A stretch of DNA of 12,122 nucleotides from JBDROU01 sp043809745 [NCBI: bacterium] (lineage in GTDB: Bacteria > Elusimicrobiota > JBDRMW01): contig JBDROU010000018.1 in NCBI GenBank assembly GCA_043809745.1, positions 1 through 12,122 of the forward strand. Reading direction: 5' to 3'. The notes beneath the pieces are model-generated. The model did no database searches. It saw nothing but the letters and a program-made list of their open reading frames with translations, and was not told the DNA's origin. Made by a program: the position numbers and the translations under genes. This document shows, one piece after another, positions 57-12,122 of this stretch. Position 1 is the first letter of the stretch. Each line of letters begins with the position of its first letter.

Positions 57-149
57 ATGATAATTAAACCAACATTGCTAAAAAGACTATTGGGAGGGCT
101 GGTGTCTTTCAGCTTGATTATTACCAGTCTGCCTCCTTCCGCATTGGCT
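57..149 (+). other. Signal peptide or signal anchor of paralogue 1
   Basis: Residues 1-31 show a basic n-region, a hydrophobic core (about 11-24) and a Pro/Ala-rich c-region ending ALA, a plausible signal peptidase I site (31/32). Whether it is cleaved or stays as an anchor cannot be decided from sequence. The LAPPC motif is encoded at 159-173, four residues beyond the putative cleavage point. Confidence 0.7.
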
Positions 150-3100
150 TCTAATCAACTTGCTCCTCCGTGCACAAATGAAACGAAGGGTGCTATTGTA
201 TTTACTGATAAGGATAATTCGCAAGCTGTCACTGAAAATAATCCTCCAGATGCATATTCGCCAAATCTTGTTGATTTATTTAATGGTTATAACGAAATCA
301 AGCCTCTTGTGTGGTGGGAGCGGTTTTTTATCGGGCGGTTTAATGATATATGGGATTTATTAATCCCCCGTGATCGAATTCCCGAAAAGGGTAAGCGCAA
401 TAAACGCCGCATTATGATTATTGTTGCAGTACTTACGATACCGATTGCTGCCGCGGTGCTTTTGCTTAAAGGGATTTCGCCGGCAGACATGGCAAATAGT
501 TTTTTAACAAATGAATCGCTTTTTGTCGGCGCTGTGTTAAAATTTAAGCTTTTGCTGGAATATGTGCGCTGTTCCATTTTTCAGGATGTTGATTCATTCC
601 GGGATTTTCTTTCCACTCAGCTGAAAAATAAAGGTTCTGATATAATCGCTGTTGCAAGTGCGATTAAATTGGGCAGGAAGAAGAAATCAAACGGTAAGTT
701 ATCCGGAAGAAAAAAATCTGTGGCTGTAAGTGCTGATAAGCTTATGAAAGACAAAAATGAAATTTTGGAATTATATAGAGACATTAAAGGCAATCAAAAA
801 GAAATACTTCAAGGCTGGGATATGATTATAAAAATAACGGAAGATAAGAATGAGTATTTTAACCATCATGTTGAGGCTTTTGCACAGAAAGCGAATGTAT
901 TGACTGACTTAGGACAGATAGATGAAGCAATCTCTCACTATGCCAAAGCAATTTCCATTTATGAGAAGAAAAAGGGGCGTTTGCCCGATAATCACATTTA
1001 TTATGTTTATTATCGGACTCTTATTGGTGTTAAACTTTGGGAACAGAAAAAAGATTTTAAGAATGCACATAATATTTTCTTAAAAGAACTGAAAATTAAC
1101 AAAAATAATGCCGATGTATACATCAGAATTATGAATTTAAATTTTGAAGCGGGCTTTCTGGATGATGCGGAAACAACTGCTAAAGAATTACTAGGAAAAG
1201 CATCAGAATCCGATCTCCATGAACACTTCACGCCAACATCATTATTTCATTCACTTAAGATGCTAGGGAGTATTGGATTAATTAGAAAGGATTTTGAGGA
1301 AGCAGAAAAATATTATGATAAAACGTTAGAGATTGCACCTGATGATTTTGAAACTTATAAATATTTGGTTTTGACTAAATTGCAGTTAGGTTTGCTTGGT
1401 GATATAGAAGAAAAGTTAAACGAAGCAAAAAAACTCGGTTATTCAGAAGACTGGCTAAAACTAATGAATTTCGGGCTTCATTTGAAAAGAAATGAGATGG
1501 AAATTGCAAAGGATGAGATAAATATGTTGCTCCCAAAACAGGCTGATAATTGGGTGTTGTATTATATTATTATGACTAACACACCTGATGCAGATAAGAA
1601 GAATGAATTTCTCAAAAAAATGTTTTCAGAAGAAAATGAAGATTGTCAAGAATTGATCCGTAAAGGTTTGAATTTGTGCTGTTCAGAACAGGTTTTTACA
1701 GACGATTTATTAGATAATATTAAAACTATAATTGCCAACTTGATACAGGATTCTAATGAAACTGTTTCATGCAATGCACAAAGAGCATTTGATGAAATTA
1801 GAACCGCATTATCTTATAAATGTATTAGCAGAGCGCAAGTTTTAGTAAACATAGGTGATTGTAAAGAAGGGATTAATCTGTATATGAAAGCAGAAAGTTT
1901 GGATCCATATGTTGATGGATTAAATACTGGTTTTGGTGAAGCATTGATCCTGAATGAACAATTTGAAAAAGGTATCAAAAGAATGGAAGCAGTATTAGAG
2001 CAGCATGAATACGACGAAAGAATAGAACGGATATTAATGAAAGCGTATCTAAAATACAGCGAATCTCTTTTCAAAAGCAACAATATCGAAAAAGCATTTG
2101 AAATATTGGGAAAAGCTCTATTAACCGAGATTGATTTTGACATGGAAAAAATAGATGTAAAAAACTCATTGGCTTTTGTCGGTCAATTTGTAGATGTCCT
2201 TTCTGCAATCAGCGAATCCCGTCCTTTAATCGGTGAGGCAATCGAATTTTTTAAAGAGATGGAACAAAATTATGCGGGTAAAATTCGTAAAAAATCTAAG
2301 AGAAATCTTACGCCGGCTCTTATTAGTTATGCGATTGGATTGCTCAACTACCTTAAAGCAAGGCATAAGAGAGTTCTTATATATCCTGAAACATTTAAAT
2401 ATTTGGCTGAGGCCCTGAAAATGCTTCCTAGCGAAACCAGGGCTCAGGGAGGCCTTAAATTTTACCTGCACAGGGGACTTTTTGAGGCGCATACTGATTG
2501 TTTTGCTTATAATGAGGCCAAAAGAGATCTCGAATTTTGTTTAAATGAGGGAATACGGGAAAATATACGCGTTCAGGTAGAAACCCAGCTGGCTATTATT
2601 GAGGAAAAAGTTGGTGAGTACAAAAGTGCGATAAAGAAATTAAGCGCAATAAATGAGGAGTTGCTTCCGAGTGATGTAAAAATTGATCGGTTGATTTCAC
2701 TGGCGCAGGCTTATTTTAAGCTTGGTAATTATGATAAAGCTCTGGAGAATCTTAATATTTCAATGAAAATAGCAAGGGAAAAGGATCCGGCGTATATCTC
2801 ATTTATTAAAGTTTTAACCGGTGAGGTATATTTAAATATGGGTGAATTTGAAAATGCGAGAATTGAAATTGAAGCCGGATTTAAGTTATTGCTGGAGGAA
2901 TGTGGTATTGTTCCCAAGGATACGCGGATTGACATTATAAGCGAAGTTGAAAAATTAAAGGAATCCGCGGGAAATGTGCCTGGCATGGATCTTCAGCATA
3001 TTAGCGAAACCCTTTCAATAAATGAGCGGAGCATGGACCTCCAGCATATTAGCGAAACACTTTCAATAATGAGTAATATATATAAATCGCTCGGTAGAGG

Positions 3101-5774
3101 TTTGGAAGATCTGGCGGAAAGCTCGCGAATTGCAAGCATTAATCTTGCAAAGCAGGATATAGATAACCGAAACGCATTGATCAAGGAAAAGGTTAAAATT
3201 GACCGGTTTGCAGGACTGGCTGATGATACGCTGTATTATATAACCGTTGAACTATTTGGTAAAGCTGTAGAAGCTTCCGATAAAAACAAATTTAAGGAAT
3301 GGATGGAATATGTCACGGAGCTTAAAGGGCGAAACTTTGAAAATATTTATGATCATATAAAATACGCTTCCAAATATTTTGACGAGAGGTTATATCTCAA
3401 GAAGAAGTTTAAGGATGTGTGGAAGGATCTAATAGTTCTTAATAAATCAGCTCAGCAGCGTGATATTGAAATAGAACAAAAGGCTGCTGAAAATATAAAA
3501 CAGGAAAAGTCAGAGCTGATGGGAATGCTTACGCCTGATATATTATTAAAAGTTAGAGAGGCATTTGCTGAAATTCATGCTAAGCCAAATATTAAGAAAG
3601 CAGTTGAGTTATTAATAGAAAATGATCGGCCTAAAGAATTAATTGAATTATTAGTTATTGTCTGGTTGGAAAGTATAAAGGAATATAAACCGCAAATTGA
3701 GGAGATATTAGAAGCTAAAGAAATAGAATCATTAATTCGTAAGGGTTTGAAAGGGCTGGAAGTTGAAAAGATGAAGGAAATAATTCCTAATCTTAATTCG
3801 CGCGCAGAAATACAAAAATTGAGAAATGAGGTATTTAGCAGGGAAATAGAGTATGGGATAACGGTTGAAGACAGACTGAAAGCTACATTCGGCGATAAGA
3901 CTGAAGAGCTTATTTCTTATGCTGTTAATTATGCTGTGATAAAGCAAAAATATGATCCCTGGGATGAATCCGAATTTGAGTTAAAACTCCTTTCAGCTGT
4001 TTGGATGGGGTATATTTTACTCCACAAACGAATAATAACAGAGGTGCTGGATAAAGATTATGTAGAAAAAATAATCAGCAGCGCTCTAAAGGAAGATGAG
4101 TGGGAAACAATTCTCAGTGTTCTTCTTATAGAGGTTTTCAATACTGCTATTTTTCGATATCCTCAATATGACCGCCTTAGGGAAACTAATATTGAATTAA
4201 TAAAGAATACTTTGGAAAAAGCCAGGTCGCTCTCTGATTTCGAAACTTCTCTTGATAAAATAGCCTTGATCTCCGGCTGGAAGGATTCAGTTAAAATAGG
4301 AATTGAGGGAAAGTTAATATGTTGCGCGGTGTTTGATAAGTGTACTTTTGAAATAGAGAGAAGCGGAAAATATAAATACGGGGAGGAAATAATTATAAGC
4401 AGTTCTGATAATGATTTTGATGTTGAATTTGTAGCTTCTCATGCTGAATTAATTAAAAAGAAATTAATTGAAAGTAAATTGAGCAATATATGGAATAACT
4501 GTCAGCCTGAAGTTATCTTCGATCGGCCCAAAAAGGCCGGAGAGGATGAAGCTGTTTATCAAGAAAGTGTCTTAAATACAAGTGATGAGTTAAACAAGTT
4601 GTTTTATGAACTTTGGGGAGTTTTTGTCGATTTAAATACTAAAAAAGCCGTTTTAAGCGTAAAGGCTGAAGCTAAAAGGGCAGGTATTAAAAAAGAATTG
4701 CCTACAGTCTTTAAAGCATTTTATTTAACAAAAAATGAGGAAGAATTTGCAAAAGCAAAATTTGAATGTGTATCTAACGAGAAAGGCGAAATGTTCTTAC
4801 AATCACCTGATGTTGCAATTCTTTTCATGGCTCAGTGGGGAAAAATTCGCGGCAATATTACTAATATAAGGGAGGGTTCAGGAATTTTCGGTGCCGAGAT
4901 TAAGAACTACGCGCTACTCAATGAGCCGGTAGTGAGAGACAACATACTGCGCACACTGCTAAGTGGACAGAGGAAATATTTAGGTCCTGAAGGGAAGTGC
5001 TGCTTCTATAAGGATGAAGGGCGGGACAAAATAATGATTGTGGTTCTGTCTAAAAGAAATTATATAGAAGAAATAGCTGAATTTGAAGGGGATGAAAGCC
5101 TGGCTGCTGTACTCTATATGCATACCCGGTTGTCTGTAGAACAAATAAGATTGCTTGTAAAAACAGTTCAAGAGCCTGAAATAAATGTTAAACTCAAAAA
5201 TAATGACATTCCTGCTCCTAAAGATCAGGAAATGCTGAATAATCTAGTTAAGGGCAACGGCACTGAGCGAGATATTTATTGGGATTATGGAGAAAAAGCA
5301 TTCTATTTTGTGAATGAAGATAAAGAATTATTTGAAGCGTTAAATAGAGAAATAAAGCAATTTCGGATTGTTTCAAGCAGAAACAATGTTAAATATTTTC
5401 AGAAAAAATATCGTGATCTAAAATTATTGCCATTGACACTTTTCTTTGAAAATAACGGTCAAGAAGCTGAAAAATTTATCTCTGGCGAACGTAAAAGTAT
5501 TTCTACAGAAAATACTTCACTTTTAAAATCCGTTATTTCCTTATTTATTGCCGTATTCTTAAGCGTCTGGTTTGCTCTTCCCAATACCAGCAATGCGGTT
5601 GCTGCTGAGTTCGTATCAAATGGTATGTCAGCTGTCAATAATATAGAGCATTTGCTGAAGCATGAGGATAAGTTGACTCCCAAACCAGTTATCTTAATAG
5701 ATACGGATGTGCGGAAAGGCGGTGTTCACAGGATCAGGCCTTTCGAGCAGGAATCCTTATTCCAGAGTCTGTAA
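57..5774 (+). CDS. Giant membrane-associated TPR-repeat protein (paralogue 1, 1905 aa)
   Basis: Not recognised as a named gene. Residues 1-31 form a signal-type segment (K4, K9, R10, then a hydrophobic stretch, with ALA before residue 32). LAPPC follows at 35-39. A second membrane helix spans about 119-138, just after the basic KRNKRR. TPR-like helical hairpins are visible at about 271-305, 352-379, 396-430, 592-617, 663-689, 842-865, 877-906 and 916-945; TPRs are protein-protein interaction scaffolds. A long charged helical part leads to a conserved C-terminal region (about 1158-1815) with CCAVFD at 1422-1427, NILRTLLSGQ at 1629-1638 and IAEFEG at 1673-1678, all shared with the next gene but of unknown family. 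The last 85 residues contain another hydrophobic helix and are absent from the paralogue. No Shine-Dalgarno precedes the ATG; this start is preferred because it keeps the basic n-region of the signal segment. The role is inferred to be a membrane-anchored scaffold; the TPR assignment is secure, the function is not. Confidence 0.9.
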   Translation: MIIKPTLLKRLLGGLVSFSLIITSLPPSALASNQLAPPCTNETKGAIVFTDKDNSQAVTENNPPDAYSPNLVDLFNGYNEIKPLVWWERFFIGRFNDIWDLLIPRDRIPEKGKRNKRRIMIIVAVLTIPIAAAVLLLKGISPADMANSFLTNESLFVGAVLKFKLLLEYVRCSIFQDVDSFRDFLSTQLKNKGSDIIAVASAIKLGRKKKSNGKLSGRKKSVAVSADKLMKDKNEILELYRDIKGNQKEILQGWDMIIKITEDKNEYFNHHVEAFAQKANVLTDLGQIDEAISHYAKAISIYEKKKGRLPDNHIYYVYYRTLIGVKLWEQKKDFKNAHNIFLKELKINKNNADVYIRIMNLNFEAGFLDDAETTAKELLGKASESDLHEHFTPTSLFHSLKMLGSIGLIRKDFEEAEKYYDKTLEIAPDDFETYKYLVLTKLQLGLLGDIEEKLNEAKKLGYSEDWLKLMNFGLHLKRNEMEIAKDEINMLLPKQADNWVLYYIIMTNTPDADKKNEFLKKMFSEENEDCQELIRKGLNLCCSEQVFTDDLLDNIKTIIANLIQDSNETVSCNAQRAFDEIRTALSYKCISRAQVLVNIGDCKEGINLYMKAESLDPYVDGLNTGFGEALILNEQFEKGIKRMEAVLEQHEYDERIERILMKAYLKYSESLFKSNNIEKAFEILGKALLTEIDFDMEKIDVKNSLAFVGQFVDVLSAISESRPLIGEAIEFFKEMEQNYAGKIRKKSKRNLTPALISYAIGLLNYLKARHKRVLIYPETFKYLAEALKMLPSETRAQGGLKFYLHRGLFEAHTDCFAYNEAKRDLEFCLNEGIRENIRVQVETQLAIIEEKVGEYKSAIKKLSAINEELLPSDVKIDRLISLAQAYFKLGNYDKALENLNISMKIAREKDPAYISFIKVLTGEVYLNMGEFENARIEIEAGFKLLLEECGIVPKDTRIDIISEVEKLKESAGNVPGMDLQHISETLSINERSMDLQHISETLSIMSNIYKSLGRGLEDLAESSRIASINLAKQDIDNRNALIKEKVKIDRFAGLADDTLYYITVELFGKAVEASDKNKFKEWMEYVTELKGRNFENIYDHIKYASKYFDERLYLKKKFKDVWKDLIVLNKSAQQRDIEIEQKAAENIKQEKSELMGMLTPDILLKVREAFAEIHAKPNIKKAVELLIENDRPKELIELLVIVWLESIKEYKPQIEEILEAKEIESLIRKGLKGLEVEKMKEIIPNLNSRAEIQKLRNEVFSREIEYGITVEDRLKATFGDKTEELISYAVNYAVIKQKYDPWDESEFELKLLSAVWMGYILLHKRIITEVLDKDYVEKIISSALKEDEWETILSVLLIEVFNTAIFRYPQYDRLRETNIELIKNTLEKARSLSDFETSLDKIALISGWKDSVKIGIEGKLICCAVFDKCTFEIERSGKYKYGEEIIISSSDNDFDVEFVASHAELIKKKLIESKLSNIWNNCQPEVIFDRPKKAGEDEAVYQESVLNTSDELNKLFYELWGVFVDLNTKKAVLSVKAEAKRAGIKKELPTVFKAFYLTKNEEEFAKAKFECVSNEKGEMFLQSPDVAILFMAQWGKIRGNITNIREGSGIFGAEIKNYALLNEPVVRDNILRTLLSGQRKYLGPEGKCCFYKDEGRDKIMIVVLSKRNYIEEIAEFEGDESLAAVLYMHTRLSVEQIRLLVKTVQEPEINVKLKNNDIPAPKDQEMLNNLVKGNGTERDIYWDYGEKAFYFVNEDKELFEALNREIKQFRIVSSRNNVKYFQKKYRDLKLLPLTLFFENNGQEAEKFISGERKSISTENTSLLKSVISLFIAVFLSVWFALPNTSNAVAAEFVSNGMSAVNNIEHLLKHEDKLTPKPVILIDTDVRKGGVHRIRPFEQESLFQSL
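411..470 (+). other. Second transmembrane helix of paralogue 1
   Basis: Residues about 119-138 form an uninterrupted hydrophobic run (MIIVAVLTIPIAAAVLLLKG), preceded by KGKRNKRR. Paralogue 2 has a hydrophobic helix at the matching place (about 115-136). Conservation of position between two diverged proteins supports a real membrane span. Confidence 0.75.
2985..3080 (+). repeat. 48-bp in-frame tandem duplication inside paralogue 1
   Basis: Two adjacent units begin at 2985 and 3033, each encoding MDLQHISETLSI (from residues 977 and 993). Their first 37 nt differ at three positions, all synonymous: GAT/GAC, CTT/CTC and ACC/ACA. Paralogue 2 has a single counterpart, ending LSIMS, which matches the second unit; the first unit is therefore the extra copy. 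The 16-residue period adds about four helical turns at the end of the TPR region. Confidence 0.9.
5517..5771 (+). other. Signal-peptide-like C-terminal extension unique to paralogue 1
   Basis: Residues 1821-1905 have no counterpart in paralogue 2. K1824 is followed by a hydrophobic stretch (about 1825-1841) and an Ala-rich segment (AVAA at 1847-1850), which has the order of a Sec signal peptide although it sits at the C-terminal end of a 1905-residue protein. A short tail follows with KPVILIDTD and a basic segment. It could act as a C-terminal membrane anchor, or it could be the remnant of a downstream gene fused in frame. Confidence 0.6.
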
Positions 5775-5780
5775 ATTATC

Positions 5781-5876
5781 ATGTATATCAATAAATTAAA
5801 AAAATCGTTTGCCTCTTTAATATCCTTATGTTTGTGCGTAACCGGTTTCCCTTGTTTGGCGCCTAATTCATACGCG
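5781..5876 (+). other. Signal peptide or signal anchor of paralogue 2
   Basis: Residues 1-32 start with a basic region (K5, K7, K8), followed by a hydrophobic core (about 10-22) and a c-region ending Ser-Tyr-Ala. Cleavage there would leave LAPPC (encoded at 5877-5891) as the exact mature N-terminus. Confidence 0.7.
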
Positions 5877-8800
5877 CTGGCGCCGCCTTGCCTTACAGAT
5901 ACTGCAGATACTTTCAACCTTATTAAAACAAGTAATCCGAGTCCGATAAAGATTAAGCCGGGAGAGACTCAAAAAAGAAAAGGTGCTCGAAAAACAGTGC
6001 AGAGTGTCAAAAAAATATCAATTCCTCAATTGATAGGGCCGCTGGTAACTTCTGATACGATAACGGAAAATATTGAATCTCTGCTCGAGTCGGGATATCC
6101 GGTCAAAAGGCAGTCACAGCGATTTTTTATTCTTGCTTCAATTGTCATTGCTCTTCCATTCATTGCGATGCTGGCATTAGGAATTTTAGTTGGAGATATA
6201 AGCAATCTTTTCTCCGGTAGTCAGTCCTTTGTAGATTTGATCGTGTTTCGTTATGACATGATTGTTGAATATGCGCTTGCTGCTATTACGCAAGATGCGG
6301 TATCGGTGTCGAAATATTTCACATCACAATTAATTAACAATAATTTACTGACAGCGGTTGGCATTGCCGCAAATATTTCGAAATCTAATAATACGTTGGA
6401 ACAGAAGCAATCACAAATTGAAAGTTTGTTTAATAAGGCGATACATGACAAGAAAATATTCGGAGAAATTATTCAATGGTGCGACCAGGAATTGAAAACG
6501 CTTTCGAAAGAAGATCCAATATGCCTGCTTATGCTTATGTATAAGGGAAACGTTTTATTTTTTAAAGAGCAATATTCTGAGGCAAGCGAAGTATACTATG
6601 AGCTTATAAAAAGGGCAAAAGAACCTATACCCTTAGAAGACAGTATATGGAGCGCTTATAGGATTTCCAAAGCTATGGAAGTTTATCAGACTAAGGGGGA
6701 TGTTGCTGCCACATTAAAAATATTCAGCGAGGAAACACAGCGGTGCGGTGATAATTATCTGCCTTTCTGGCATATAGCGCGCATCAATATCATGCAAAAT
6801 GATTTAGATAACGCGGAAAAAGATTATCTTATTCTGTTAAGTTTGCTGAAGGATTCCTATGGGGTGCAGCCCATATTTAAACAGAGCGAATATATGCTGA
6901 ATTTATTTGAGCCTGGTTTAAGTTCCCAGGTATTAATTACTGTTGATGCCTGCTATTTCAAAAGCACAGCGCTTGTTAAGTTGGGTGCAATATCCGAAAA
7001 AAGTAACAAACTGGAAGAAGCAGAAAGGCATTACTATGAAGCGATAGCAGTTGATCCTAAATGCATAGACGCATATTACAAACTGCTTTCAATGAAATTA
7101 AAACAAGGACTGCGCAATGAAGCAGAGAGAATCATAAATGAACTCGACTATCCTGAAGAGCTAAAAGGCACAATCGAATTTATTTTTGCATTAAACCAGG
7201 GTGATTACGGTAAAGCGCGCCGTATGCTTGCTGACATTCTAAAGAGCGATGATCATATCTGGCATGTGTATGAAGCTTTACTAGAGCATCTGACAGTTCA
7301 AATAAAAAGGAACGAGTTTTTCGAATATATTTTTTCTTTTGAAGAGGAAGAAACGCTCCAACAAATTCATAAAGGCTTGAGAGAGTATATCAGGGGTGAA
7401 ATATTAGATGATAAAGATATTGAGATTCTTGTTGACACGCTTGAGACTGCAGGAAGTTCCAGTAATCCAATTGCAAGAAAAAATGCCCGGTTTAATTTAG
7501 AAGAGATCCAAGAACTGTTTTGTAGCAGGAAATCAAAGAAAGCATATAATCTTATACTTAAAGGCGAGTTTGAAGCCGCAGTGAATATATACCGCGAGTT
7601 AGAAAAAATACAACCGCTCAGCGTAGATGTTAACCTTCACTACGGTTTAGTCCTTTTAGAACGAAGGGAATGCGCCAAAGGCATAGTAAGATTGCAAAGA
7701 GCATTAAGGCATTGCGAAAATAAAGAAGTCGCACTTATAATAAAACTGAAGCTCGCAATCGCGTATTTAATCAGTGCAGGGAATCTGGTTGAAAAGGGAA
7801 ATATTAAAAGCGGATATAAATATCTGGAAAAAGCATTTGAGATTGAGACCGAAACTTCGCTTGAGCATGAATACGATCAGAATAAAGTAGTAAAAGCCAG
7901 CAGGCATAATATTGTGTTTTTTTTCAATGAATTTATTGATGTGCTTCCAACCCATTCCGATCTGTGCGAACAGCATATCGATAATTTTAATAATTTATTA
8001 ACTCAATTTAAAGAACAAAAGCCCTTGAAGAGCACAACCCCTGCGCTAATTCATTATGCGCTTGCAGAATTGTATTTAGCAAAATCCAGAAATGAAAATG
8101 TTTTCGGCTATATAGAGACATTTAAGTATTTTGAAACTGCGCTTAAGCTAACTCCTAAAGATCCGGAGATAAGAAGGACGCTTCAATTTTTTATTTATCA
8201 AGCGCGTGCGGAGGCATTCTCCGAGTGTTATGCAGTTCGGATGGCAAAAAAAGACATTGAGGAATGCTTAAAAATAGGACTTTCGGAATATGATCCTTCA
8301 GTAATTAGTACAGTGCTGGGCTTTTTTCAGGCACAGGTGAATGAGTATTCGGATGCGATAAAAACCTTGAATGCCGTTGATGCTGCTGTTCTGAAAGGTG
8401 ATTTATTGATTACCCATACAGCTGCGCTGGCAATATCATATTTTGAGCTCGGGGATTTTGAATCATCTGAAAGGCTTTTTGAAGAAGTGAAGACAATCCT
8501 GGAAGAAAATCAGGAAATCGAAGCTCCCACTAGATTTAGACTCGATCTCAGCCGGTTTCTGCTTCATCAAGGAAGACTTGATGAAGCAGAAAGAGAAGTT
8601 GAGAGAGCTTCGCGTGAGCTTCTTGAAAATATAAACAAAGCCTCTTTCTCAGAATTTACTTTCAATATGAATAACCTGGAAGAACACATTGATGAAATAG
8701 CAGTTAAACAGCTTCTGAGGCTTAGTGAGCTGCTTTCCATTATGAGCAGGTTGCACCATTCCCGCGATAGAGAGGAACTGGCGTTAAGTGCGCGTAATTT

Positions 8801-11102
8801 GAGTGTCAAGCTGGCTAAAAAGGATTTGGAATCCCGGTGGAAAACAAGAAAAACCGGGGTGGATGTTGATATGTTCATCGATATTGACAGCGAAGTGTTA
8901 TTCAAGCTGGCTGAAGAAAAATTTAAAAACGGCGAGTATGATTTTTGGATAATGTTGACGAGAGAACTTATAACCAGAAAATTCGCCCCTATATTTCCTT
9001 ACTTTAGTGACAAATTTAAGCTAATAATAAATTTAAAAAAATTAAGTAATCCCTTACGGACTGAAATAAAAGAACTGAGTAAAGAAAGCGTTAAAGCCTT
9101 GCAGTGGCAGCAGCAAAAAGCAAGAGAGTCAGTTATGACTCCAGAGGTAAAAAAAATAGTGGGGGATGTGCTCGGCAAGGATAATCAAACATACGTGGAT
9201 GCAGCATTTAAGCTGCTGGCAAAGAAAAATTTGCCTTCAGATGATGTTGTTGAGTTCTTCCGTGTCCTTTTGCTTACTTATTTTGTACAAACTAGACCCG
9301 GAATTATGAATACTTTAAGCCGTAAAGAAGTGAACTCTATAATACGGGATGGTGTAAAGGATTTGGATATTAAGGAGATGCGAAATATAGAGTTTAATCT
9401 TACGAAAAGGGAGATCGAAATAACTCTGAATGAAAAAATATTTGATAATAAGCTTAAAAGGCAGTTATCATCAGTTTTTGGCAATGAGATAAAAGGCATT
9501 ATTTCTCTTGTGATCCGCAGGGAAGGGCTTGAACAGAAAATTGATACCAGGAAAAAGGAGTGGTGGAGGGAAGAGGTTTTACTGGTGAGGCTTTTTTCTT
9601 CAATATGTATAGAGTACATATATTGCTATAAACCAATCATTATTGAACTGCTGGGTGATGAATTTGTGGAATATAAAATTAATGAGCTTACAGCCAGAAG
9701 GTTATGGAACGAAGTTATGCCGGCGCTGCTTCTTTCAGTTAGCAAAATAATTGGAGCGTTTTATCCAAAGTATTACCGTTTGGAAAGAGTTGACAGGATG
9801 ATTATTGCCAAAACACTTAAAGAGGCACGTTCATGCAGCGATTTTCAAAAACTTCTGGATGAGGAAGCCGAAAAAATAGGCTGGCAAAAACCTTTGGTTG
9901 AAATAGCAATTGGTGATAAAAAAATCTGTTTTGCGGTATTTGACTCAAAATCGAATGAAACAAAAGAAGGTCAGCTTGAATACGATAACGAAATAGTCAT
10001 CAGTATGCCAGATTATACAATGGACGGTGCTTTTTTGGATACTTACAGTGAATCCCTAAAACAAGCTTTTGCCGGAAGCGGGTTAAGCGAAGTTTGGGAA
10101 AAACAGAGACCCAAAGTGAAACTTTACAGCGATATTGAGTCGAAGCCGGCGAAAAAGTCAAAAGCAGGGGTGTCTTATGAATTGGAAAATAAATTTGCTA
10201 AAATGTTTGAGGAGAGCTGGCATAACGTTGTTGAAAGCAATAACAGCAAGGCTGAAAAAGTGCTGACAGAAGCTGCCAATTCAGGTAAACTCGACAAGAG
10301 TTTTGTTGTAGGTAAATTAGTTTATAAAGCATTTTTTACAGATCAGGAAGATATATCTCTTAAAACCAGAACGGGGAAAATTCCTAATATTGTTGTGCTT
10401 GATTTGTCAACCTGGCAGGCCATAAAAAAATACAGTTTACAAAGACCTGACCTTATGATGTTCGGTACAGGCCCGAAGAAAACAGCTGAATCTAACGAAA
10501 CTGCACTGATTGAGAATATTGTCCGGACATTAATTTGCGGACAAACGTATTCATTTGAAAACAGTAGAAACTATTTTGTTTATAATGATAAAAGGCGGAA
10601 TAAAATTATGATTGCAGTGATTAATCTTAACGGACGTATATGCAAGATCGCTGAATTTGAAGGTTATGAAGAAAGCGCAGCCGAAATATATATTCAAACT
10701 GAAATTGCGCCGAGATATATAAGAAGTTTTGTAAATATACTACAGGGGGGCAAAAAAATCGGATTTGACAGACGCAGTGAAGGGATTCTAGATTGCTCAA
10801 GCATAAAGGATCTGGTGAGCGAAAAAGAGGTTAAAAGAAAAATATATTGGAACAAAAAAACAGGAAGTTTTATTTGTTCTGATGTGGATGAAGAATTTGC
10901 GGTTGCAATAGGGAAAAACGGCATTTCTTACTGGAACGGTTCAATGGATGAGATCTACAAAGAGTACGCAGAGTCTGATCTAGTTGAAATAACAACAATG
11001 TTTGAAAAGTTGGTTAATGTTGCAGTATATTCAAATATTAATAAAACAGAAAAAGCAGTTGTACAGCTTAAACTACTTGCGGATCCCGGAGATTCGAATT
11101 GA
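5781..11102 (+). CDS. Giant membrane-associated TPR-repeat protein (paralogue 2, 1773 aa)
   Basis: A collinear paralogue of the preceding gene. Residues 1-32 form a signal-type segment ending SYA, followed directly by LAPPC (33-37). A second membrane helix lies at about 115-136 after KRQSQR. TPR-like hairpins are visible at about 254-280, 393-428, 587-642, 881-910 and 915-945. One gap-free 40-residue stretch (753-792) matches residues 752-791 of paralogue 1 at 21 positions. The C-terminal region (from about 1119) repeats the same blocks: ICFAVFD (1382-1388), NIVRTLICGQ (1579-1588), KIMIAV (from 1608) and IAEFEG (1623-1628). It lacks paralogue 1's C-terminal hydrophobic tail. The ATG lies 6 nt after the upstream stop with no Shine-Dalgarno, so translation is probably coupled to gene 1. 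Function is unknown; it may act with, or as an alternative to, paralogue 1 as a scaffold. Confidence 0.9.
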   Translation: MYINKLKKSFASLISLCLCVTGFPCLAPNSYALAPPCLTDTADTFNLIKTSNPSPIKIKPGETQKRKGARKTVQSVKKISIPQLIGPLVTSDTITENIESLLESGYPVKRQSQRFFILASIVIALPFIAMLALGILVGDISNLFSGSQSFVDLIVFRYDMIVEYALAAITQDAVSVSKYFTSQLINNNLLTAVGIAANISKSNNTLEQKQSQIESLFNKAIHDKKIFGEIIQWCDQELKTLSKEDPICLLMLMYKGNVLFFKEQYSEASEVYYELIKRAKEPIPLEDSIWSAYRISKAMEVYQTKGDVAATLKIFSEETQRCGDNYLPFWHIARINIMQNDLDNAEKDYLILLSLLKDSYGVQPIFKQSEYMLNLFEPGLSSQVLITVDACYFKSTALVKLGAISEKSNKLEEAERHYYEAIAVDPKCIDAYYKLLSMKLKQGLRNEAERIINELDYPEELKGTIEFIFALNQGDYGKARRMLADILKSDDHIWHVYEALLEHLTVQIKRNEFFEYIFSFEEEETLQQIHKGLREYIRGEILDDKDIEILVDTLETAGSSSNPIARKNARFNLEEIQELFCSRKSKKAYNLILKGEFEAAVNIYRELEKIQPLSVDVNLHYGLVLLERRECAKGIVRLQRALRHCENKEVALIIKLKLAIAYLISAGNLVEKGNIKSGYKYLEKAFEIETETSLEHEYDQNKVVKASRHNIVFFFNEFIDVLPTHSDLCEQHIDNFNNLLTQFKEQKPLKSTTPALIHYALAELYLAKSRNENVFGYIETFKYFETALKLTPKDPEIRRTLQFFIYQARAEAFSECYAVRMAKKDIEECLKIGLSEYDPSVISTVLGFFQAQVNEYSDAIKTLNAVDAAVLKGDLLITHTAALAISYFELGDFESSERLFEEVKTILEENQEIEAPTRFRLDLSRFLLHQGRLDEAEREVERASRELLENINKASFSEFTFNMNNLEEHIDEIAVKQLLRLSELLSIMSRLHHSRDREELALSARNLSVKLAKKDLESRWKTRKTGVDVDMFIDIDSEVLFKLAEEKFKNGEYDFWIMLTRELITRKFAPIFPYFSDKFKLIINLKKLSNPLRTEIKELSKESVKALQWQQQKARESVMTPEVKKIVGDVLGKDNQTYVDAAFKLLAKKNLPSDDVVEFFRVLLLTYFVQTRPGIMNTLSRKEVNSIIRDGVKDLDIKEMRNIEFNLTKREIEITLNEKIFDNKLKRQLSSVFGNEIKGIISLVIRREGLEQKIDTRKKEWWREEVLLVRLFSSICIEYIYCYKPIIIELLGDEFVEYKINELTARRLWNEVMPALLLSVSKIIGAFYPKYYRLERVDRMIIAKTLKEARSCSDFQKLLDEEAEKIGWQKPLVEIAIGDKKICFAVFDSKSNETKEGQLEYDNEIVISMPDYTMDGAFLDTYSESLKQAFAGSGLSEVWEKQRPKVKLYSDIESKPAKKSKAGVSYELENKFAKMFEESWHNVVESNNSKAEKVLTEAANSGKLDKSFVVGKLVYKAFFTDQEDISLKTRTGKIPNIVVLDLSTWQAIKKYSLQRPDLMMFGTGPKKTAESNETALIENIVRTLICGQTYSFENSRNYFVYNDKRRNKIMIAVINLNGRICKIAEFEGYEESAAEIYIQTEIAPRYIRSFVNILQGGKKIGFDRRSEGILDCSSIKDLVSEKEVKRKIYWNKKTGSFICSDVDEEFAVAIGKNGISYWNGSMDEIYKEYAESDLVEITTMFEKLVNVAVYSNINKTEKAVVQLKLLADPGDSN
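6123..6188 (+). other. Second transmembrane helix of paralogue 2
   Basis: Residues about 115-136 are strongly hydrophobic, run from FFILASIVIAL to ALGILVG, and follow KRQSQR. The position matches the second helix of paralogue 1, although the sequences have diverged. Confidence 0.75.
11088..11101 (+). promoter_or_regulatory. Ribosome binding site that fixes a TTG start for gene 3
   Basis: GGAG at 11088-11091 lies 7 nt before TTG at 11099-11101, inside the end of paralogue 2. The TTG overlaps the TGA stop (11100-11102) as TTGA. Good spacing plus the stop-start overlap favours this rare start over the in-frame ATG at 11312, which has no Shine-Dalgarno and would discard the hydrophobic N-terminus. 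Confidence 0.65.
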
Positions 11103-11203
11103 AAAACAGCGGGCAATTTACATTCCAATTTATTAAAATCAGGAAGCAAAAACCGGTTATTATTATCGTGATCTGTGTTTTATTCTTTTCTTCTGCTCAT
11201 AGC
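11099..11203 (+). other. Signal peptide or anchor of the methyltransferase-like protein
   Basis: Residues 1-35 comprise a basic stretch, the hydrophobic core PVIIIVICVLFF and a short c-region Ser-Ser-Ala-His-Ser. A cut after A-H-S would make LSPPS (encoded at 11204-11218) the mature N-terminus, as predicted for paralogue 2. Confidence 0.6.
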
Positions 11204-12122
11204 CTTTCGCCGCCAAGTATAGAAGAATTGAAAACCGGCCAGGGACAGGAAGAACAATTGCCGTGGTTAAGAGATCCGGTTTACTTGCAGCAGAAATACA
11301 TAGATCACAAAATGTTTGCTGTATTTCCTGCAGAGGACTTAAAAGAACTTCTTGCAAAGGCAGAGGATATAACAGGAATTTCTCTGGCTAATGCCTCAGG
11401 GAAAATAGTAGTCGGCGGATTTTCCAACACTGAAGAGCACCTGGTTGAAACTGCTCGTTTTATGAAATCAGCTGAAATTATCGGGATAGAATGGGATCCA
11501 CATTCTTGCAATGAAGCAAGAAAGAAAATTGATGATTATGATCCTGAGATTGTCTCCCGAATAAAGATCGAATGCGCTGACCTCAGGAATCTGAGGGGCT
11601 GTATAAAGGATAATTCCGTAACGGTATTCTTGCTCCATATGGTACTTGATCTCTGGAAAGAGGATGAGGGTTCTCTGAAGCGAATACTTTCCGAGGTTTC
11701 GCGGGTTTTGGCTCCCAATGGTTTGCTGATAGCCGGCAGTGAAGGTCTGGCTTTTTCAAAAGTGATTCTGGAAACACAGCATAATATGATTGATATTGCG
11801 CCCGATAAAAATGATATTTTGATTTATTTCAATAACCGAAAAGGCAACGGGGCAGTAAATTGGGAACAAATGAGAGTAAAAAAAGATAATGAAAAACAAT
11901 CAGCTTCAGAATCAAAGGGTCCGGATAATTCTTTCTTGCCGGTAAATCAAATTGATCCCGAGATGGCAGAAAAAATTATTACCAGCGCCCTTAATTTTAA
12001 GGCGGGTAATCCTTTCCATATTAAAAGTATAACTGACGAGTTAAATCTAAAGCCGGAGATAGTTAGAGGGGTTTTACTTGGCAATGGCTTTGCTGATATA
12101 GCTGGAAAAACCGGGTATATGG
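11099..12122 (+). CDS. Membrane-targeted SAM methyltransferase-like protein, 3' end outside window
   Basis: An open frame of 341 codons reaches the right edge with no stop. Residues 13-18 are basic (KIRKQK), about 19-32 are hydrophobic, and AHS precedes LSPPS at 36-40, echoing LAPPC of the two TPR proteins. Residues about 100-245 have the order of a class I SAM-dependent methyltransferase: a beta strand and loop KIVVGGFSN (102-110), an acidic end to the second strand in IIGIEW (E131), an Asp after the third strand (CADL, D161), strand VTVFLLH, and the typical EVSRVLAPNGLLIAG (199-213). The first loop departs from the usual GxGxG, so SAM binding is uncertain. Residues about 288-341 look helical with a possible helix-turn-helix (SITDELNLKPEIVRGVLL), but this is weak. 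The substrate is unknown. It is probably translationally coupled to paralogue 2. Confidence refers to the gene being real; the fold assignment is about 0.65. Confidence 0.85.
   Translation, partial: MKNSGQFTFQFIKIRKQKPVIIIVICVLFFSSAHSLSPPSIEELKTGQGQEEQLPWLRDPVYLQQKYIDHKMFAVFPAEDLKELLAKAEDITGISLANASGKIVVGGFSNTEEHLVETARFMKSAEIIGIEWDPHSCNEARKKIDDYDPEIVSRIKIECADLRNLRGCIKDNSVTVFLLHMVLDLWKEDEGSLKRILSEVSRVLAPNGLLIAGSEGLAFSKVILETQHNMIDIAPDKNDILIYFNNRKGNGAVNWEQMRVKKDNEKQSASESKGPDNSFLPVNQIDPEMAEKIITSALNFKAGNPFHIKSITDELNLKPEIVRGVLLGNGFADIAGKTGYM

What the first reader, a model, noticed from the sequence alone, without database searches (positions are those of the whole stretch)
159..11218. Shared L-[AS]-P-P-[CS] motif right after the signal segment in all three proteins
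LAPPC (159-173), LAPPC (5877-5891) and LSPPS (11204-11218) lie directly after an N-terminal hydrophobic segment in three genes, one of which is unrelated in its main domain. In genes 2 and 3 the motif would be the exact mature N-terminus after signal peptidase cleavage. This suggests a targeting, processing or modification tag specific to this lineage. It is not a lipobox. I have a vague recollection of similar Leu-Ala-Pro motifs in Omnitrophota proteins, which I cannot verify here.
Basis: partly seen in the sequence, partly recalled or inferred. Interest (0 to 1): 0.62.

Follow-up and report, generated by a model that had tools for sequence, protein, structure and literature searches.

The report
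Post-signal Leu-x-Pro box, Omnitrophota giant proteins
Three neighbouring bacterial genes carry the same short Leu-Ala/Ser-Pro-Pro stretch just after their export signal; the exact stretch is not common in relatives, but a looser Leu-x-Pro version recurs at that place in very long exported proteins of the same phylum, which may mean a special export leader for giant proteins.

Summary
Genes 1 and 2 are homologues (27% identity), so only two instances are independent. The window is placed in Omnitrophota: its TPR module recurs in 2 of 384 genomes, inside ORFs of 3,470 and 6,838 aa. The exact motif is not a phylum-wide tag: YALAPP is no commoner than its reversed control and none of 30 hits follows a signal. 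A looser box, L-[AQS]-P, is over-represented in the first 37 residues after the signal of long ORFs: 10 of 57 proteins against 8 of 499 later windows, first of 400 patterns of that shape, though [AQS] was partly chosen on these data. A sequence-conserved signal peptide tied to long ORFs also turned up, in 61 of 160 further genomes at E<1e-3. The window proteins do not match that leader. An export role is inference; paralogy plus coincidence is nearly as likely.

The parts
57..5774 (+). gene 1: 1905-aa TPR protein with N-terminal signal-like segment
   Evidence: TPR families in Pfam; homologous to gene 2
57..149 (+). gene 1 signal-like segment, aa 1-31, ending ALA
   Evidence: sequence; 12-residue hydropathy 2.4, not above 1.6 over 19 residues; cleavage site read by eye
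159..173 (+). LAPPC, gene 1 aa 35-39
402..485 (+). gene 1 second hydrophobic segment, aa 116-143, likely membrane anchor
   Evidence: 19-residue hydropathy 3.01
5511..5591 (+). gene 1 third hydrophobic segment, aa 1819-1845, itself signal-like (followed by NAVAAEF)
   Evidence: signal-likeness read by eye
5781..11102 (+). gene 2: 1773-aa TPR protein, homologue of gene 1
5781..5876 (+). gene 2 signal-like segment, aa 1-32, ending SYA
   Evidence: hydropathy 1.87; cleavage site read by eye
5877..5891 (+). LAPPC, gene 2 aa 33-37
6114..6218 (+). gene 2 second hydrophobic segment, aa 112-146
   Evidence: hydropathy 2.76
11099..12122 (+). gene 3: SAM-dependent methyltransferase with signal-like N-terminus; TTG start; runs off the window
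11099..11203 (+). gene 3 signal-like segment, aa 1-35, ending AHS
   Evidence: hydropathy 2.11; cleavage site read by eye
11204..11218 (+). LSPPS, gene 3 aa 36-40
11450..11746 (+). methyltransferase domain of gene 3, aa 118-216
   Evidence: Pfam Methyltransf_11/25/31

Best explanation
The window comes from an Omnitrophota bacterium and encodes long (or, for gene 3, perhaps long) exported or membrane-anchored multi-domain proteins. LAPP[CS] is the local form of a degenerate post-signal box, L-[AQS]-P, that recurs in the first ~37 residues after the signal segment of long exported ORFs in this phylum. Most likely it is part of an export leader for very long proteins: a short extended, proline-containing early-mature segment next to the signal peptidase I site, which keeps the cleavage site and the first mature residues open for SecA/SecY and signal peptidase while a very long chain is being made. 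Shown: the three motifs, the excess of the loose box in long ORFs but not in shorter ones, and a separate sequence-conserved signal peptide tied to long ORFs. Inferred: the export role, and that the window motif is a version of that box rather than a look-alike.
For: Motif present in 3 of 3 window genes, one of them unrelated in its main domain. Window module found in 2 of 384 Omnitrophota genomes, in giant ORFs whose mature N-terminus reads TLQPxTLF. Sample of one order (1.46 Mb, 19 genomes, 360 signal-like ORFs): L[AQSE]P in the first 37-residue window of 9 of 34 ORFs of 700 aa or more, against 0-2 of 34 in each of 11 later windows; without the 5 proteins used to build the search profile 6/29 against 8/319, Fisher 0.0004, 18 of 5000 within-window shuffles. 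Further genomes, selected with a signal-only profile that holds no motif: L[AQS]P 5/28 against 4/238 (Fisher 0.0009; shuffle 85 of 5000). Pooled, L[AQS]P ranks first of 400 X[AQS]Z patterns (10/57 against 8/499). Leader profile matches below E 1e-3: 124 of 175 lie in open frames of 700 aa or more; rough baseline 34/360.
Against: Window proteins score 2.3, -0.5 and -1.5 bits with the leader profile, ranks 36, 130 and 216 of 313 reported: they are not members by sequence. In the post-signal window S.L is more strongly enriched than L.P, and the reversed P[AQS]L is 3/28 against 2/238 in the further genomes (Fisher 0.009, but 1061 of 5000 shuffles), so a Pro/Leu-rich composition explains part. One of the 5 hits there (L289) lies 28 residues downstream. 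Of 8 leaders whose profile match ended before or just at the box, none has L[AQS]P in the 45 residues shown and 2 have a looser LAVxS. A longer consensus L[AQS]..[STC], striking in the profile-selected set (26/37), shows no excess in either set not selected on it (3/29; 3/28 against 20/238). The class [AQS] was partly chosen after seeing some of the same proteins. Only about one in four to one in six long exported ORFs has the box (9/34, 6/29, 5/28).
Confidence: 0.4

Rival explanations
1. Ordinary: genes 1 and 2 share LAPPC because they are paralogues; gene 3 has LSPPS by chance in an early-mature region that in exported proteins is generally flexible and rich in Pro, Ala and Ser. No dedicated function.
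For: Genes 1/2 homologous. Exact motif not enriched in 384 genomes. Composition accounts for part of the loose box (P[AQS]L 3/28; S.L and F.P also enriched). Window proteins fall outside the leader family.
Against: Chance of L[AS]PP[CS] near the signal of gene 3 about 2e-5 from composition; the loose box exceeds within-window shuffles in two sets (L[AQSE]P 18/5000; L[AQS]P 85/5000) and tops 400 patterns.
Confidence: 0.36
2. One reading: a recognition tag for a dedicated processing, modification or sorting enzyme of this lineage, acting on the new N-terminus LAPP/LSPP.
For: By eye the motif starts at mature residue 4, 1 and 1 in genes 1, 2 and 3 (sequence).
Against: In relatives the box is degenerate, sits up to about 30 residues behind the signal and is absent from most exported ORFs. 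No enzyme was sought; the own genome is not held.
Confidence: 0.12
3. Leader shuffling: a signal-plus-linker module is copied between long ORFs by recombination, so the box marks common descent of leaders and not a function.
For: A conserved signal sequence stands in front of many long ORFs with differing downstream sequence.
Against: The leader of gene 3 does not align with those of genes 1 and 2 beyond the motif, and none of the three matches the conserved leader.
Confidence: 0.1

Closest known systems
Giant ORFs of Omnitrophota (Seymour et al. 2023, PMC10066038; passages read)
   Same: Same phylum; long ORFs with few annotated domains and predicted membrane segments; window genes 1/2 share a module with 3,470- and 6,838-aa ORFs.
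   Different: That paper's main text has no occurrence of 'signal peptide', and the passages shown describe no leader or post-signal motif; the window ORFs are 1.8-1.9 kaa, below its 20-kb limit.
Extended signal peptide region (ESPR) of large autotransporters (papers seen as search listing only; position and function recalled)
   Same: A conserved N-terminal export feature tied to large exported proteins.
   Different: ESPR precedes the hydrophobic core; here the conserved parts are the core itself and a box behind it. No Pfam match of the window N-termini at E<=1.
YSIRK-type signal peptides of Gram-positive surface proteins (recalled)
   Same: Signal peptide with a conserved sequence motif in a class of large surface proteins.
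   Different: Different motif, inside the signal, in cell-wall-anchored proteins; no such match in the NCBIfam or Pfam scans of the N-termini.
Lipobox of bacterial lipoproteins (recalled)
   Same: Short motif with Cys at the end of a signal segment.
   Different: A-P-P-C does not fit [LVI][ASTVI][GAS]C, and gene 3 has Ser in place of Cys.

Membership tests
Omnitrophota long-ORF leader (defined here) | Signal sequence with majority consensus K-x-I-x7-F-x-x-Q-x-I-x-W-A-x-P | tested here: not met
   Leader HMM: g2 2.3, g1 -0.5, g3 -1.5 bits, in the range of short exported ORFs
Omnitrophota long-ORF leader (defined here) | L-[AQS]-P within 37 residues of the signal end | tested here: met
   LAPPC, LAPPC, LSPPS; but only part of the leader-bearing ORFs have it (5/28)
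Omnitrophota long-ORF leader (defined here) | Long ORF (700 aa or more) | tested here: inconclusive
   Genes 1 and 2: 1905 and 1773 aa; gene 3 at least 341 aa, runs off the window
Lipoprotein (lipobox) | [LVI][ASTVI][GAS]C at the signal end | tested here: not met
   A-P-P-C / S-P-P-S in the sequence; consensus recalled
YSIRK, ESPR and other N-terminal signal families in Pfam/NCBIfam | Match of the first 80 residues to a library model | tested here: not met
   Window g1-g3: no Pfam match at E<=1; NCBIfam only a weak EF0750_LPXTG match for g1, E 0.013, 16 bits, cut-off 47. That YSIRK and ESPR models are in the libraries is recalled.
Omnitrophota origin of the window | Closest homologues of genes 1/2 in Omnitrophota genomes | tested here: met
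   E 2.1e-65 and 3.0e-43, TPR plus a non-TPR region, in 2 of 384 genomes of the phylum; no other phylum was searched at this depth, so nearer relatives elsewhere are not excluded
   Own genome not held; in relatives not enriched

The most novel reading that the evidence does not exclude
Omnitrophota have a dedicated export leader for giant proteins: a signal peptide conserved in sequence across the phylum, followed by a Leu-x-Pro box, placed in front of otherwise unrelated multi-kilo-residue ORFs; the window shows a clade in which the box has become a fixed LAPP[CS]/LSPP[CS] mature N-terminus read by the export or processing machinery.
Probability: 0.25. Interest if true: 0.72.

Novelty: new variant of a known kind. 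Interest (0 to 1): 0.45.

Why it matters
Omnitrophota encode some of the largest proteins reported (PMC11573180, passage), and how such chains leave the cell is open. A leader that is conserved in sequence and tied to long ORFs would give a handle to list the exported giants of an Omnitrophota genome and to test their route. The window motif itself is a small part of this and may be ordinary.

Tried and rejected
First scan of genome contigs with the two-gene alignment found nothing; viral contigs with two queries found nothing; plasmids by tblastn of gene 2 nothing. The lineage was reached instead through a 16S pattern.

YALAPP as a phylum-wide tag: rejected. One search had looked at one strand of the loci only; one search repeats it on both.

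The longer consensus [TNKD]-L-[AQS]-x-x-[ST]-x-F, which looked convincing in profile-selected N-termini, was rejected as a general motif because its core L[AQS]..[STC] shows no excess in the two sets not selected on it (3/29; 3/28).

Rows dropped before counts: of 52 loci 4 gave no reading, 5 were profile-training rows and 6 had the wrong frame, leaving 37, 5 training rows of 34 removed, 2 of 30 loci too short for a full window. The 34 long ORFs include some that look non-exported (by eye RNA polymerase subunits at L208, L204, and a transporter), which were kept. The signal finder is a home-made hydropathy rule; L289 and L295 were counted as found, though L295 lies in a 170-aa frame.

AlphaFold2 models of the gene 2 N-terminus (mean pLDDT 39) and of the gene 1 C-terminal region (54) are too poor to use; no fold search was made. 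No search for a co-occurring protease or transferase was made.

Literature: searches listed no paper whose title or abstract start names such a leader or motif in Omnitrophota; most hits were seen as listings only; PMC10066038, PMC11573180 and PMC13153191 were seen as passages.
Full report
The observation. The three motifs stand at the stated coordinates and each is the only copy in its protein. On DNA level the pattern has 3 matches where shuffles give 0.23 on average and never 3 in 200. Genes 1 and 2 are homologous over their whole length (498 of 1872 positions identical) and both are TPR proteins; gene 3 is a SAM methyltransferase. The evidence is therefore one shared inheritance plus one independent instance. 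All three N-termini have a hydrophobic segment, that of gene 1 weaker; genes 1 and 2 have a second strong one within residues 112-146, which would anchor them, so that the TPR part may lie on either side of the membrane.

The lineage. No genome is held for the window. I reached Omnitrophota genomes through a 16S pattern taken from the OP3-565 probe (read in PMC13153191); all 35 stretches found in genome contigs are titled Omnitrophota or Omnitrophica, or bear the names Aceula, Gygaella or Velamenicoccus, genera of that phylum. A profile of genes 1 and 2 then matched, at E <= 1e-8, 4 of 384 genomes of that phylum: G082 (E 2.1e-65) and G354 (3.0e-43) over TPR and a later non-TPR region, G232 and G026 over the C-terminal region only, each inside a much longer open frame (6,838, 3,470, 30,185 and 57,099 aa). 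A four-sequence profile in 384 genomes of the class matched 72 genomes at E <= 1e-10, but apart from G082 and G354 with E no better than 1.5e-19 and nearly all over the TPR part, which I read as generic TPR hits. In both searches mostly two candidates per genome were scored, so a relative may have been missed. Other phyla were not searched.

Homologues do not carry LAPPC. The G082 and G354 ORFs begin with a signal and then read EPDAFSKHTLQPQTLF and NPDAFQKNTLQPYTLF. The two best homologues of gene 3, 33% and 30% identical, are internal domains of 9,605- and 7,832-aa frames in G054 and G351, by eye without L[AS]PP just before them (4 of 368 genomes at E <= 1e-4).

The exact motif in relatives. 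YALAPP, read on both strands of 384 genomes, has 30 matches, the reversed control 40 by my count of the table. None of the 30 follows a signal segment. The sample (0.38 Mb of G082 and 11 kb of G354) has no L[AS]PP behind a signal-like segment; 8 frames of 80 to 157 aa have another residue in place of Leu. Over the sequence held, three ORFs have [LMIV][ASQ]PP behind a signal-like segment: LSPPN in an 883-aa ORF of G247, LSPPM in a 928-aa ORF of G251, and LSPPS in a doubtful 141-aa frame of G176.

The loose box. N-termini of long ORFs from the order of G082 pointed to L-[AQSE]-P. In 34 ORFs of 700 aa or more with a signal-like start, it occurs in the first 37 residues of 9, and in 0 to 2 in each of 11 later windows; in 326 shorter ORFs there is no excess (10 against 8, 11, 4). 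With the 5 profile-training proteins removed: 6 of 29 against 8 of 319, and 18 of 5000 shuffles of the window reach 6. I then wrote down the test (note; there with 35 residues, run with 37) and used a profile of the signal alone, ending before the box, on 160 genomes outside that order, none of which had given a row to the profile. Loci were cut for the best match of 30 genomes. Pooled over 57 proteins, L[AQS]P is the most enriched of 400 patterns of the form X[AQS]Z (10/57 against 8/499) and L.P is second of 400 of the form X.Z, after S.L. Against this, of 8 leaders whose profile match ended before or just at the box none has L[AQS]P in the 45 residues shown. The excess is real but modest, partly compositional, and the class [AQS] was partly chosen on the first set.

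The leader. The signal itself is conserved: majority consensus K-x-I-x7-F-x-x-Q-x-I-x-W-A-x-P over 37 sequences (42 leaders aligned). A profile of leaders, without the rows that were also targets, ranks ten ORFs of 700 aa or more as the top ten of 363 N-termini; five of the ten had seeded the search that found the leaders, five had not. With the signal-only profile 56 of 80 and 51 of 80 genomes have a match at E <= 0.1, and by my count 32 and 29 at E < 1e-3; of 175 matches below 1e-3, 124 lie in open frames of 700 aa or more. The baseline of 34 in 360 signal-like ORFs is rough: it comes from one order, from stretches cut at 20 kb, and with a crude signal rule. Short frames among the matches may be cut by contig ends; this was not checked. 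Three leaders tried against Pfam and NCBIfam gave no match better than E 0.13.

The window against the leader. Genes 2, 1 and 3 score 2.3, -0.5 and -1.5 bits. They are not members of this leader family. What they share with its carriers is the loose box and, for genes 1 and 2, the length and the TPR module.

How it may work. The early part of an exported chain must stay extended for SecA, SecY and signal peptidase (established knowledge of the Sec pathway, recalled). A proline-containing stretch directly behind the cleavage site does that, and very long chains may need it more. This is my best reading (0.40). That the motif is a tag for a dedicated enzyme (0.12) or mere leader shuffling (0.10) is less likely; paralogy plus chance and composition (0.36) is nearly as likely as the best reading.

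Known and new. Giant ORFs of Omnitrophota are published (PMC10066038, passages). Searches listed no paper that names a conserved leader or post-signal box for them; most subscription journals and bioRxiv preprints are outside the library, and the listed papers were not read whole.

Noticed in passing
L287-L316, L231-L282 (places): A signal peptide conserved in sequence (..F..[QDN][DN]IAWA.P..) in front of long ORFs with differing downstream sequence across Omnitrophota; no Pfam or NCBIfam match better than E 0.13 for the three examples tried.
   Followed up: partly
G026:C6, G232:C4, G367:C47, G024:C51: Open frames of 57,099, 30,185, 23,462 and 18,022 aa in relatives; the C-terminal region of genes 1/2 recurs in the first two.
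   Followed up: no
G082:C2 (L091, L092), frame from 4285: 6,838-aa ORF with a signal and, by eye, methyltransferase-like, P-loop, TPR (homologous to window genes 1/2), repeated helix-turn-helix-like and SAM-methyltransferase-like parts: cytosolic-type enzymes behind a signal peptide.
   Followed up: no
window 5511-5650: Gene 1 ends with a second signal-like segment (aa 1819-1845, then NAVAAEF) followed further on by KLTPKPV, another L-x-P.
   Followed up: no
L148:15391 onward (G247): ORF of at least 1,534 aa with a signal, an LQPQ box and, by eye, a SecA-like ELRTGGGKTLTL stretch.
   Followed up: no
L283, L286: Linkers of the type RSE[LM]R around domains in giant ORFs, three in 993 aa of L283 and one in L286; possible processing sites between units.
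   Followed up: no
window 11085-11103: Gene 3 starts at TTG overlapping the stop of gene 2 by 4 bases, with GGAG upstream: translational coupling likely.
   Followed up: no
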